DNA of 52,092 nt, from assembly GCA_001819335.1 (NCBI GenBank), contig MHMH01000015.1, forward strand, positions 1 to 52,092. The letters are read 5' to 3'. The notes beneath the pieces were generated by a model. That model saw only the letters and a list, made by a program, of their open reading frames with translations, was not told the DNA's origin and did no database searches. The position numbers and the translations under genes were made by a program. Positions 103 to 2,833 of the stretch are shown in pieces. Within the stretch, counting starts at the first letter, position 1. The number at the start of each line of letters is the position of its first letter. The stretch is from Candidatus Nealsonbacteria bacterium RIFCSPLOWO2_01_FULL_43_32 (GTDB lineage: Bacteria; Patescibacteriota; Minisyncoccia; Minisyncoccales; MHMH01).

Positions 103-131
103 TTGACAGGTTCAATATTTAGGAGTATAAT
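103..131 (+). promoter_or_regulatory. sigma70-type promoter of the DGR target gene
   Basis: TTGACA (103-108), 17-nt spacer, TATAAT (126-131). Confidence 0.85.
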
Positions 132-181
132 AGGGATATAATAATTTTGTTCTTTTTAACGAAAATACTTACTAAAAAAGT

Positions 182-230
182 AGTCGTAGCCAAAAGATAC
201 TGATGTTATCGGTATTTTCTGGCTATGACT
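182..230 (+). promoter_or_regulatory. 5' UTR hairpin of the DGR target gene
   Basis: AGTCGTAGCCA (182-192) pairs with TGGCTATGACT (220-230) with one G:T wobble; a second small hairpin TTCGGC/GCCGAA at 277-293 precedes the RBS. Confidence 0.5.
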
Positions 231-307
231 GCTTCGTTGGCAGGATTGGCCCTATAACCTCGGGAAGAGGTAAAAATTCGGCGAACAGCCGAAAGAGGAG
301 TGGAAAA

Positions 308-904
308 ATGAAGTACGGTGAACTGAATCTAGGACAGGTGGAGGCGGTGGTCAATAAGCTTGGCGGCATGGAAGGCGTGAGAATGTTTTTGGCGGGTGAA
401 TTGGTAGTTAAGGAAGCGGAACGGAAGTTTTCCACCTGGAAAACCGTCAAACTCGGGACCGGACTCAAGTCCGCCGACGATTTCCGCCGCACCCTTAACG
501 CTGGCGGAATCAAAATCAGCGATTGGGCCAACGATATTCTCGGGAAACCTGCTTTTTCGGTGGCTGCCGAGGCAACAGAAGTTGACCTAATTAAGGTCAC
601 GGTTGCCGAACTCGGTTTCAAGAAGGGTGCCCGGCGCGACCAGATCTACGAACGCGCCAAAGAGCTTGGACTTCAACTTTGTCCGCCAGAAGTCGGCCCG
701 CAGTTGCGTCTGCAGTACCAGGACCAGCCGAATAACGAGTGGATTCTCGTCGGAATGGAACCGATTGCCGGTTCCGGTGGCAACCTGCGCGTGTTCTCTG
801 TGGAGCGCGATGGCTCGGAGCTGTGGCTCAGCGGCGATTGGGGCTATCCCGACGGTGTCTGGGGTCCTGACGATCGTTTGGCCTTCGTCTTCCCCCGCAA
901 GTAA
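308..904 (+). CDS. DGR target (variable) protein, 198 aa, with C-terminal variable repeat
   Basis: ATG 308 preceded by GAGGAG (295-300); the ORF track start at 203 is probably too far upstream; C-terminus ...GGNLRVFSVERDGSELWLSGDWGYPDGVWGPDDRLAFVFPRK* is the VR. Confidence 0.85.
   Translation: MKYGELNLGQVEAVVNKLGGMEGVRMFLAGELVVKEAERKFSTWKTVKLGTGLKSADDFRRTLNAGGIKISDWANDILGKPAFSVAAEATEVDLIKVTVAELGFKKGARRDQIYERAKELGLQLCPPEVGPQLRLQYQDQPNNEWILVGMEPIAGSGGNLRVFSVERDGSELWLSGDWGYPDGVWGPDDRLAFVFPRK
764..900 (+). repeat. DGR variable repeat (VR)
   Basis: 137-bp alignment to 1259-1395 (offset 495) with 18 mismatches, all at TR adenines; the last 24 nt (877-900) are identical (IMH-like end). Confidence 0.95.
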
Positions 905-974
905 AAAAGCCCTTGGACCCTTGGATCCCTGGCTCCCGTTTGGGAACTTGGTCCCTTGGCCCTTGGACGGTAAA

Positions 975-1015
975 GCCCTCTCTCGTTTCGTAATACGAGA
1001 GAGGGCCTTTTATTT
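975..1015 (+). terminator. Rho-independent terminator of the target gene
   Basis: GCCCTCTCTCGT (975-986) / ACGAGAGAGGGC (995-1006) followed by CTTTTATTT. Confidence 0.85.
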
Positions 1016-1258
1016 CAACAGGGATGATTTATAATTAGAATTGGATAATAGGCGAATCTGTCCGCGGTTACGGCTTCGGGCGGCCGAATTCCGGAATTAT
1101 CGCAATGCAGAATCTTGGCGGCTACGGCTTCCAAGAGCGTCATTGATAATTTCCAAAAATAAAGATACTTGGTATAAGGCGTTAGGGTATTTTAGATACC
1201 GCATAAGATGCAGCCCCGAGAGTATTCAGGGGGCAGTGGCTTAGAAGACGCTTTATAC

Positions 1259-1395
1259 ATTACCGATTCCGATGGCAACCTGAACGTGTTCTCTGTGAAG
1301 CGCGATGACTCGGAGCTGTGGCTCAACAGCAATTGGAGCAATCCCGACAATGTCTGGAATCCTGACAATCATTTGGCCTTCGTCTTCCCCCGCAA
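1259..1395 (+). repeat. DGR template repeat (TR), non-coding
   Basis: Adenine-rich version of the VR with AAC/AAT codons (NLN, LNSNW, SNPDNVWNPDN) where the VR has other codons; located between target and RT on the same strand. Confidence 0.95.
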
Positions 1396-1433
1396 CTCTC
1401 TTTATTTTTTTACCCGTCCAATTAGAGACGGGT

Positions 1434-1727
1434 TTATTTGAGAACCTTAATCCACCCCCCAAGCATTTTGCCGATTTCATTTAATTTTTCAGATATTAAA
1501 ATATATTTTTTATTGTCCAATGATTTTATCTCCCAAGCTATTTGCAGAAAGAATTTTAACAAATCTAATTTTACGGAAGCATTCTTAAGAGAAATAAGTT
1601 TTTCTAATTTGTCTGAATAGCTCGCTTTTATTATTAGTTCAATTGTTTCCAGAAACAAAGAATCAATTTTTGTTCCGATGGTGTAGCGGGAATCTTTTTG
1701 GAAATTAGGCAAGAATTCATGCCACAA
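1434..1727 (-). CDS. avd: Avd-like DGR accessory protein (four-helix bundle, 23S rRNA-IVP/Avd family)
   Basis: MWHEFLPNFQKDSRYTIGTKIDSLFLETIELIIKASYSDKLEKLISLKNASVKLDLLKFFLQIAWEIKSLDNKKYILISEKLNEIGKMLGGWIKVLK; the frame stays open upstream to about 1814 (...PSPFGLSLIQKLVRAYKLWHEF...), so the annotated TTG start is probably internal. Confidence 0.85.
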   Translation of the reverse strand: MWHEFLPNFQKDSRYTIGTKIDSLFLETIELIIKASYSDKLEKLISLKNASVKLDLLKFFLQIAWEIKSLDNKKYILISEKLNEIGKMLGGWIKVLK

Positions 1728-1806
1728 TTTGTAAGCCCGAACTAGTTTTTGGATTAAGCTTAATCCAAAGGGGCTGGGGGGGGGTATTACCGGTAAAATT
1801 ATTATT

Positions 1807-2802
1807 ATGAAAATTCAATTGGCTCATAATTTCGAAGATATTGTCAGTTTGGATAATTTACTTGAGGCCTGGCCGGAATTTTTAAAGGGAAAAAGAGAGA
1901 AAAAAGACGTTCAGGAATTTTCTTTTCGCTTAATGGACAATGTCATATCTCTCCATTATGATTTAGTTTATCATATCTATAAACATGACGGCTATCAAGC
2001 GTTTAGCATTCAGGACCCAAAACCCAGGAACATTCATAAAGCGAGCGTGCGGGATAGATTGCTTCATCGCGCCATTTACCGCAGACTTTACCCGTTTTTT
2101 GACAAGACATTTATCGCCGATTCTTTTTCCTGCCGCATCGGCAGGGGCACTCACAAGGCACTGGATAGATTTCGTTTGGTTGCTTTTAGGGCTAGTGAGA
2201 ATAATACCAGAACCTGCTGGATATTGAAATGCGACGTTAAAAAATTCTTTGCCAGCATTGACCATGGCATTTTAATAAGCATCCTGCAAAAATATATACC
2301 CGATAAGGATATTTTATGGCTTTTGGGAACGGTAATAAGCAGTTTTCCCGGCCTTGGCCAGAAAACAGGACTGCCGCTCGGCAATTTAACTTCGCAGCTT
2401 TTCGCGAATATCTATATGAATGAATTCGATCAGTTCGTGAAGCACAGACTGAAAGCAAAATATTACATTAGATATGCCGACGATTTTGTTTTACTCTCGG
2501 AGAGCAGGGCTTGGCTAGGGGCGCAGATCCCAGCCATTGATAATTTTTTACAAAGAGAGCTGAAGCTTACTCTGCATCCCCAAAAAATTTCCATCAAAAC
2601 GCTTGCTTCCGGGGTTGATTTCCTCGGCTGGGTGCATTTCTCCGATTATAGGGTATTAAGAACCAGTACAAAGAAAAGAATGCTTAGAAGAATCCGAAGA
2701 CGCTCGTCCCTGTCAACAGCTAATTCTTATTTGGGGCTTTTACGGCACGGCAGTACCTATAAATTACGGGAAGAAGTTTTAAAACAGCATTTGTCGAATT
2801 AG
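1807..2802 (+). CDS. DGR reverse transcriptase
   Basis: RT motifs incl. CDVKKFFASIDH, GLPLGNLTSQLFANIYMNEFDQFVKH (LGxxxSQ DGR-type motif 4) and YIRYADDFVLL; adjacent to TR/VR and avd. Confidence 0.95.
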   Translation: MKIQLAHNFEDIVSLDNLLEAWPEFLKGKREKKDVQEFSFRLMDNVISLHYDLVYHIYKHDGYQAFSIQDPKPRNIHKASVRDRLLHRAIYRRLYPFFDKTFIADSFSCRIGRGTHKALDRFRLVAFRASENNTRTCWILKCDVKKFFASIDHGILISILQKYIPDKDILWLLGTVISSFPGLGQKTGLPLGNLTSQLFANIYMNEFDQFVKHRLKAKYYIRYADDFVLLSESRAWLGAQIPAIDNFLQRELKLTLHPQKISIKTLASGVDFLGWVHFSDYRVLRTSTKKRMLRRIRRRSSLSTANSYLGLLRHGSTYKLREEVLKQHLSN

Positions 2803-2809
2803 ATAAAAG

Positions 2810-2833
2810 TCGGCTTGGAAAAGCCGATTTTTT
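2810..2833 (+). terminator. Terminator after the DGR RT
   Basis: TCGGCTT (2810-2816) GGAA AAGCCGA (2821-2827) followed by TTTTTTA. Confidence 0.8.

What the first reader, a model, noticed from the sequence alone, without database searches (positions are those of the whole stretch)
103..2833. Complete diversity-generating retroelement (DGR) in a CPR-like genome
The locus holds a promoter, target gene, C-terminal VR, terminator, TR, antisense Avd-like ORF, DGR-type RT and RT terminator. Over 137 aligned bp (VR 764-900 versus TR 1259-1395, constant offset 495), 18 positions differ. All 18 are adenines in the TR (18 of 32 TR adenines), and no C, G or T position differs. This is the hallmark of adenine-specific mutagenic retrohoming. 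The RT carries an LGNLTSQ motif-4 variant, as in known DGR RTs, rather than the group II intron QG motif.
Basis: partly seen in the sequence, partly recalled or inferred. Interest (0 to 1): 0.97.

Follow-up and report, generated by a model that had tools for sequence, protein, structure and literature searches.

The report
CPR retroelement with structured 5' template RNA
This tiny uncultured bacterium carries a real gene-mutating retroelement (DGR), and it and about a hundred relatives share an elaborate RNA structure placed before the template instead of after it, so this branch may start its mutagenic copying differently from the one DGR studied in the laboratory.

Summary
Confirmed: a complete diversity-generating retroelement (DGR). 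All 18 VR/TR mismatches fall on TR adenines (p=3e-14), with a DGR-type RT, an Avd and a target gene ending at the VR. DGRs in Patescibacteria are already known, so that part is ordinary.

Between target and TR lies a structured RNA domain (about 1042-1258) with overwhelming covariation (93.7% of cells paired against 40-49% for slid controls; compensatory changes at 38 of 46 pairs; 62 sequences). A long-range helix (P0) pairs 1155-1165 with 1399-1409 across the TR. It covaries (z=10.4) and replicates in held-out loci (z=4.7). Helices P1 and P0 bracket the TR/VR homology to within a few nucleotides. A terminator follows at once, then an antisense avd. A covariance model finds the RNA in 52 of 287 Patescibacteria genomes; the best new hits lie beside antisense avd and RT. 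It is absent from Bordetella phage BPP-1 and other sense-avd DGRs. RTs with this RNA form one clade.

In BPP-1 the structured, priming RNA lies 3' of the TR; here it lies 5'. I propose cis-priming at the conserved junction adenosine A1167, with cDNA ending at P1. The architecture is shown; priming is inferred. New variant of a known kind.

The parts
103..131 (+). Promoter of the target gene, TTGACA-N17-TATAAT
   Evidence: 12 of 12 consensus matches; -10 region conserved in relatives
144..242 (+). Conserved structured 5' leader of the target mRNA: box GUUCUUU, then a long hairpin (about 174-233)
   Evidence: 94.3% of cells paired against 29-49% when slid, 14 of 19 pairs with double changes, 24 sequences; model R2 match 68.9 bits; no Rfam match
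308..904 (+). Target (variable) protein, 198 aa, stop codon directly after the VR
   Evidence: ORF; homologues in relatives; single copy in the genome; no Pfam or NCBIfam match
764..900 (+). Variable repeat (VR)
   Evidence: 18 of 18 mismatches at TR adenines
909..970 (+). Degenerate CTTNG repeats of 7-8 nt period immediately 3' of the VR
   Evidence: 63 loci: 212 motifs against 34.6 in shuffles; spacing 7-8 nt 82 times against 0.4; 46 loci with at least 3 copies against 1.0
975..1006 (+). Terminator of the target gene, 12-bp stem
1030..1035 (+). -10 box TATAAT of the template-RNA gene
   Evidence: A -10 box of at least 5/6 in 66 of 92 loci (shuffled 32, any position), mostly at one distance, 66-80 nt before hairpin 2
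1042..1258 (+). Structured 5' domain of the template RNA: hairpin 1 (1060-1081), hairpin 2 (1114-1135), P0 5' strand (1155-1165), conserved junction A1167, P1 (1172-1183 with 1247-1258) enclosing two hairpins. 5' end inferred from the promoter
   Evidence: Covariation; covariance model R1 matches 1107-1266 at 155.3 bits, E 2.5e-33
1155..1165 (+). 5' strand of long-range helix P0 (AAAAATAAAGA)
   Evidence: Exact reverse complement of 1399-1409
1167..1167 (+). Junction adenosine, candidate 2'-OH primer (inferred)
   Evidence: A in 89 of 93 RNAs while both neighbours vary (62 of 64)
1259..1395 (+). Template repeat (TR)
   Evidence: begins directly after P1 and ends 3 nt before P0'
1399..1409 (+). 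3' strand of helix P0 (TCTTTATTTTT)
1412..1438 (+). Terminator of the template RNA
   Evidence: a terminator-like hairpin found downstream of the RNA in 93 of 93 loci, median 135 nt after the R1 match
1434..1727 (-). avd, antisense to the RNA and the RT; homology extends to about 1757 without an ATG/GTG/TTG, so the start codon is unclear
   Evidence: PF22296 and NF033474; antisense position conserved in relatives
1807..2802 (+). DGR reverse transcriptase, 331 aa
2810..2834 (+). Hairpin and T-run after the RT
   Evidence: and the sequence

Best explanation
A DGR that diversifies the C-terminal VR of a 198-aa target protein by adenine-specific mutagenic retrohoming, and whose template is a separate noncoding RNA of about 395 nt with a layout permuted relative to Bordetella phage BPP-1. 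The RNA starts near 1042 from its own promoter, folds into a structured 5' domain (two hairpins with the shared loop GGYYACGG, then P1 enclosing two more hairpins), presents the TR directly after P1, and ends at a terminator directly after the TR. Helix P0 pairs the strand before P1 with the strand after the TR, so the TR forms a loop between P1 and P0. SHOWN: the TR/VR pattern, the conserved covarying RNA, helix P0, the tight match of P1 and P0 to the two ends of TR/VR homology, the terminator, and antisense avd linked to this RNA. INFERRED: RT and Avd bind the 5' domain; the 2'-OH of A1167, next to the P0 strand, primes cDNA at the 3' edge of the TR; P1 stops the cDNA at the TR 5' edge; the mutated cDNA replaces the VR.
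For: TR/VR: for the window; for 66 pairs (A 1146/2108 changed, others 37/6151). RNA domain: 46 pairs on 62 sequences, 93.7% paired against 40-49% slid, 714 double-change cells against 210 in shuffles, 38 pairs with changes on both sides. Model R1 finds the window at E 2.5e-33, is strong in nearly all loci with enough upstream sequence that were not used to build it, and hits 52 of 287 Patescibacteria genomes; 19 of the 20 best loci were shown to carry both avd and RT on opposite strands (the window and 18 others; for L107 only the RNA was checked). P0: swapped-partner test p<=5e-5; scan of 270 window pairs peaks only there, z=10.4, best unrelated pair 3.0; still better than partners from the nearest RT relative, p=8e-5; 28 held-out loci z=4.7, p=5e-5. 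Boundaries: TR homology begins a median 3 nt after P1 (80% within 0-6) and P0' begins a median 3 nt after TR homology ends. A1167 is A in 89 of 93. Separate gene: conserved -10 and terminators in 93 of 93. Contrast: BPP-1 has avd abutting the TR and a 144-nt spacer before brt; its structured spacer 3' of the TR recruits the enzyme and holds the priming adenine (PMC12875486). R1 is absent from BPP-1 and the sense-avd loci L133-135 and present in the antisense-avd viral loci L126-132, weakly in L128. RTs with R1 form one side of one branch, 92/97.
Against: No transcript or cDNA data; priming at A1167, the stop at P1 and binding by RT/Avd are inferences from geometry and conservation. With a broad, poorly placed 3' window the first two held-out P0 tests were weak (p=0.03 and 0.10); the significant one uses a window set by the terminator. 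15 of 62 loci pair better with the nearest relative's strand, and 6 of 64 have no strong P0 stem. L118 has antisense avd but no R1 match, and L128 only a weak one. P0 could serve RNA stability or termination instead of priming.
Confidence: 0.72

Rival explanations
1. An ordinary BPP-1-type DGR: the conserved upstream RNA is only the 3' end or attenuator of the target mRNA, or a regulatory leader, while template use and priming depend on RNA 3' of the TR as in BPP-1.
For: BPP-1 works through a structured spacer 3' of its TR, and RT and Avd are homologous.
Against: The 3' flank before the terminator is only about 15-60 nt and is followed by antisense avd. The upstream RNA has its own -10, covaries with the TR 3' flank, and its P1 meets the TR start in nearly all loci, which a target 3'UTR would not need.
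Confidence: 0.12
2. P0 only closes the RNA fold or tunes the terminator, and cDNA is primed otherwise, for example by a nicked template RNA or the RNA 3' end.
For: P0' lies beside the terminator; a cited title reports cDNA primed by nicked template RNA in BPP-1 (reference 6 in PMC12875486).
Against: P0 places the near-invariant unpaired A1167 at the TR 3' edge, and the VR/TR homology stops about 3 nt from it in most loci.
Confidence: 0.3
3. A dead or decaying DGR in this genome.
For: avd has no canonical start codon before 1727 and a run of nine C upstream; the closest same-family copy (L004) lacks the RT N-terminus.
Against: RT, target and VR frames are open, P0 is perfectly paired over 11 bp, and VR/TR differ only at A, with no background mutations.
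Confidence: 0.08

Closest known systems
Bordetella phage BPP-1 DGR (mtd/avd/TR/brt)
   Same: Adenine-specific TR-to-VR change, homologous RT, Avd, VR at the C-terminus of the target; a preference for G before a 3' C is seen in both (PMC12875486)
   Different: In BPP-1 avd is sense and abuts the TR, and the structured RNA with the priming adenine is the spacer between TR and brt; here avd is antisense, the structured RNA is 5' of the TR, the 3' flank is short and ends in a terminator; R1 does not match BPP-1
DGR clade 2 of Roux et al. 2021 (Patescibacteria only; PMC8144416)
   Same: Cell-encoded, in Patescibacteria, targets without recognisable domains; the window fits this description
   Different: Membership is inferred, since their reference RTs were not available here; no RNA structure, Avd or orientation is mentioned in that text (searched)
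RT-7 RNA (Rfam RF03028)
   Same: Sub-threshold match 1106-1201 (26.8 bits, E 0.0011) with the same hairpin-2 loop; RT-7 and R1 matches overlap in genome G162, and an RT-7 match lies beside an RT and avd in G081
   Different: Far below the gathering score of 116.8 bits here and in all 287 genomes; an RNA without assigned role in the text available to me
Retron msr-msd RNA
   Same: Similar geometry in outline: structured 5' part, template after it, long-range stem joining the two ends, proposed 2'-OH priming (PMC8867640)
   Different: Different RT lineage, no msDNA evidence, template matches a VR, priming base would be A and not G

Membership tests
Diversity-generating retroelement | TR/VR pair differing at TR adenines only | tested here: met
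   18 of 18, p=3.4e-14
Diversity-generating retroelement | DGR-lineage RT, not group II or retron | tested here: met
   PDB best match 8ub7; tree separates it from group II RTs 100/100 and puts it in a clade of TR/VR-bearing loci; retron RTs not included in the tree
Diversity-generating retroelement | Accessory protein Avd | tested here: met
   PF22296, NF033474 over cut-off
Diversity-generating retroelement | VR inside an intact target gene, usually at the C-terminus | tested here: met
   VR ends at the stop codon
Diversity-generating retroelement | C-type lectin fold of the variable domain | not tested
Diversity-generating retroelement | Active mutagenic retrohoming | not testable with these tools
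   No reads or experiments
BPP-1-type DGR template RNA | Long structured spacer 3' of the TR, between TR and RT, carrying the priming adenine | tested here: not met
   Only 16 nt lie between TR and terminator stem, then antisense avd; the structured domain is 5' of the TR
Rfam RT-7 (RF03028) | Score at or above the gathering threshold of 116.8 bits | tested here: not met
   26.8 bits, E 0.0011
RNA family R1 (this work) | Match to a model built from relatives | tested here: met
   155.3 bits, E 2.5e-33, next best in the window 11.9 bits; the window is itself one of the 43 rows of the model
DGR clade 2 (Roux 2021) | RT position in their tree | not tested
   Reference sequences not available; host and target description fit

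The most novel reading that the evidence does not exclude
The large Patescibacteria branch of DGRs uses a permuted, self-priming template RNA: the enzyme-binding and priming domain lies 5' of the template, a long-range helix brings a conserved adenosine to the template's 3' edge, and a second helix ends the copy at its 5' edge, so RNA structure alone sets both ends of the mutated segment. A CTTNG repeat array 3' of each VR would mark the target in place of the BPP-1 IMH and stem-loop.
Probability: 0.45. Interest if true: 0.8.

Novelty: new variant of a known kind. Interest (0 to 1): 0.62.

Why it matters
DGR mechanism is known mainly from one phage, where the RNA that recruits the enzyme and primes the cDNA lies after the template. 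DGRs are common in Patescibacteria, and this layout occurs in about a fifth of the sampled genomes of this phylum. If the large CPR clade uses a 5' domain instead, the rules for where copying starts and stops are more flexible than thought and can be read from covariation. It names single bases to test (A1167, P0, P1), gives an RNA model to annotate DGR templates without needing a VR, offers a function for Rfam RT-7-like RNAs, and suggests a compact, separately encoded template RNA for targeted-mutagenesis tools.

Tried and rejected
Rfam at gathering threshold on ten relatives gave only tRNAs, so the RNA is not covered by a curated family at threshold. The idea that loop GAGAGU pairs with ACUCUC after the TR was dropped because it did not covary; P0 explained the region. 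Two held-out P0 tests with 3' windows anchored on avd were weak because the windows were misplaced or too wide; a terminator-anchored window replaced them, and all three are reported. PADLOC defence-RT matches are generic RT similarity and were not followed. A target match to FlgC at E 1.3 is noise. A tree join of the RT-7-linked RT with L119 is a long-branch join and is not used. Paul 2017, Wu 2018, Handa 2018 and Weinberg 2017 were not held by the library, so prior description of this RNA cannot be excluded.

Full report
OBSERVATION. The finding is correct to the base. VR 764-900 and TR 1259-1395 align without gaps over 137 bp; 18 positions differ, all are adenines in the TR (18 of 32), none of the 105 other positions differs, p=3.4e-14. 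The homology ends at the last sense codon of the target; the next VR bases are the stop codon, while the TR runs into a different sequence. The RT (1807-2802) and the antisense Avd (1434-1727) are confirmed by profiles; the best solved relative of the RT is 8ub7, which from my own knowledge is the Bordetella phage DGR RT. The genome holds one RVT_1 RT and one target gene.

RELATIVES. A scan of 85,462 genomes gave 392 relatives of the RT by patterns; the 80 best (59-69% identical) lie almost all in Patescibacteria MAGs. In 62 loci a TR/VR pair was found mechanically (66 pairs in all): 1146 of 2108 TR adenines differ in the VR against 37 of 6151 other bases, and G is the commonest product (679 of 1146). 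Where avd can be seen in these 80 loci it lies antisense to the RT, between TR and RT; the one exception is a second, unrelated DGR in L078. In the window's own family, G003 instead has a sense-avd DGR. RT relatives in other phylum-level groups are closer to the window (69%) than those of its own family (48-65%), which suggests horizontal movement (inference).

THE RNA DOMAIN. The 237-405 nt between VR and TR (most loci) hold a conserved structured RNA. On 62 sequences, 46 pairs of the consensus structure are formed in 93.7% of cells against 40-49% when slid; 714 cells carry changes on both sides against 210 in shuffles; 38 pairs have compensatory changes. In the window: hairpin 1 (1060-1081), hairpin 2 (1114-1135), an A-rich strand (1155-1165), a junction with A1167, and the 12-bp helix P1 (1172-1183 with 1247-1258) enclosing two hairpins. 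P1 ends at 1258 and the TR begins at 1259. The structure was taken from the same alignment, so the slid control is somewhat favourable to it, but compensatory changes of this number cannot come from that alone.

HELIX P0. The strand 1155-1165 (AAAAATAAAGA) is the exact reverse complement of 1399-1409, just after the TR. In relatives both strands change together, for example AAATACA with TGTATTT in L018, GAAGC with GCTTC in L014 and L083. Own strands pair better than swapped ones (p<=5e-5); among 270 window pairs only this one stands out (z=10.4; best unrelated 3.0); the result holds against the nearest RT relatives (p=8e-5) and in 28 loci not used to find it (z=4.7). Two earlier held-out tests with poorly placed windows were weak (p=0.03 and 0.10).

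BOUNDARIES AND GENE LIMITS. TR/VR homology begins a median 3 nt after P1 (80% within 0-6 nt), and P0' begins a median 3 nt after the homology ends; most often the P0 5' strand stops one base before the conserved A, which is A in 89 of 93 RNAs while its neighbours vary. A terminator-like hairpin follows in 93 of 93 loci, and a -10 box sits at a fixed distance upstream in most (66 of 92 with at least 5/6 against 32 in shuffles). The template is therefore a separate RNA gene of about 395 nt, not part of the RT message. No transcript data were available.

DISTRIBUTION AND SPECIFICITY. Covariance model R1 scores 155 bits in the window and 11.9 for the next match; the window is one of its 43 rows. 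It is strong in nearly all loci outside its alignment that hold the upstream region and in 52 of 287 Patescibacteria genomes. In the loci returned from those genomes, all but one (L107, not shown for avd or RT) lie beside an avd and RT on opposite strands. Controls: no match in BPP-1 or the sense-avd viral loci L133-135; matches in antisense-avd viral loci L126, L127, L129-132 and a weak one in L128. In an RT tree the R1-bearing RTs are one side of one branch (92/97), and group II RTs are far off (100/100). A few related RNAs stand without avd or RT nearby (G162).

MECHANISM. In BPP-1 the TR is flanked 5' by avd and 3' by a spacer that folds, recruits bRT-Avd and carries the adenine that primes cDNA at the TR 3' end (PMC12875486; layout confirmed). 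Here avd is antisense, only 16 nt lie between TR and terminator stem, and the structured part is 5'. The simplest reading is a permuted RNA: P0 brings A1167 to the TR 3' edge, its 2'-OH primes, RT copies the TR with errors at A, and P1 ends the copy. Shown: the structures, their positions and linkage. Inferred: priming, stop, binding, retrohoming.

OTHER ELEMENTS. The target mRNA leader is a second structured RNA: 94.3% paired against 29-49% slid, 24 sequences; model R2 hits 16 of 287 genomes, about half of the hits upstream of R1 cassettes and others not. Immediately 3' of the VR, and not of the TR, lies an array of degenerate CTTNG repeats with 7-8 nt period: 212 motifs in 63 loci against 34.6 in shuffles, spacing 7-8 nt 82 times against 0.4; clusters of four are rare elsewhere. 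It follows both VRs of L081. Its place is that of the BPP-1 IMH and stem-loop, so a target mark is possible.

NOVELTY. DGRs in Patescibacteria, including a Patescibacteria-only RT clade with targets lacking known domains, are published (PMC8144416). I found no description of a structured RNA 5' of the TR or of P0 in the library, but key papers are not held. The closest named RNA is Rfam RT-7, below threshold. Verdict: a real DGR, new variant of a known kind, with a directly testable priming model.

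Noticed in passing
window 144-242: Conserved structured leader of the target mRNA (long covarying hairpin after a GUUCUUU box) in more than 20 relatives; R2 hits in some genomes are not next to a DGR RNA and may mark remote targets.
   Followed up: partly
window 909-970: Degenerate CTTNG repeats with 7-8 nt period immediately 3' of the VR, conserved across relatives and rare elsewhere; role unknown.
   Followed up: partly
L131 (IMG/VR contig of 2797 bp): A contig with terminal repeat, so apparently circular (about 2.7 kb), that is nothing but one DGR cassette: target, R1 RNA, antisense avd and RT. 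Could be a circle, a tandem array or an assembly artefact.
   Followed up: partly
L114 7243-7446 and L115 5836-6072 (genome G162): Two near-identical R1/RT-7-like RNAs without avd or RT in the 6-7 kb that follow: possible orphan template RNAs.
   Followed up: no
window 764-900: 16 of 18 VR changes read G, more than the clade average of 59% (p=0.007); G is favoured before a 3' C, as reported for BPP-1.
   Followed up: partly
window 1727-1790, - strand: avd has no ATG, GTG or TTG start ahead of its conserved N-terminus and a run of nine C upstream; start codon unclear.
   Followed up: no
L119 (G003, same family): A different DGR with sense avd and a 191-bp TR (20 of 20 mismatches at A) in the window's own family.
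   Followed up: no
L113 7597-7749 (G081): RT-7 match (60.6 bits) between a sense avd and an RT, on the same strand; TR not found on the contig. Suggests RT-7 belongs to DGRs with another layout.
   Followed up: partly
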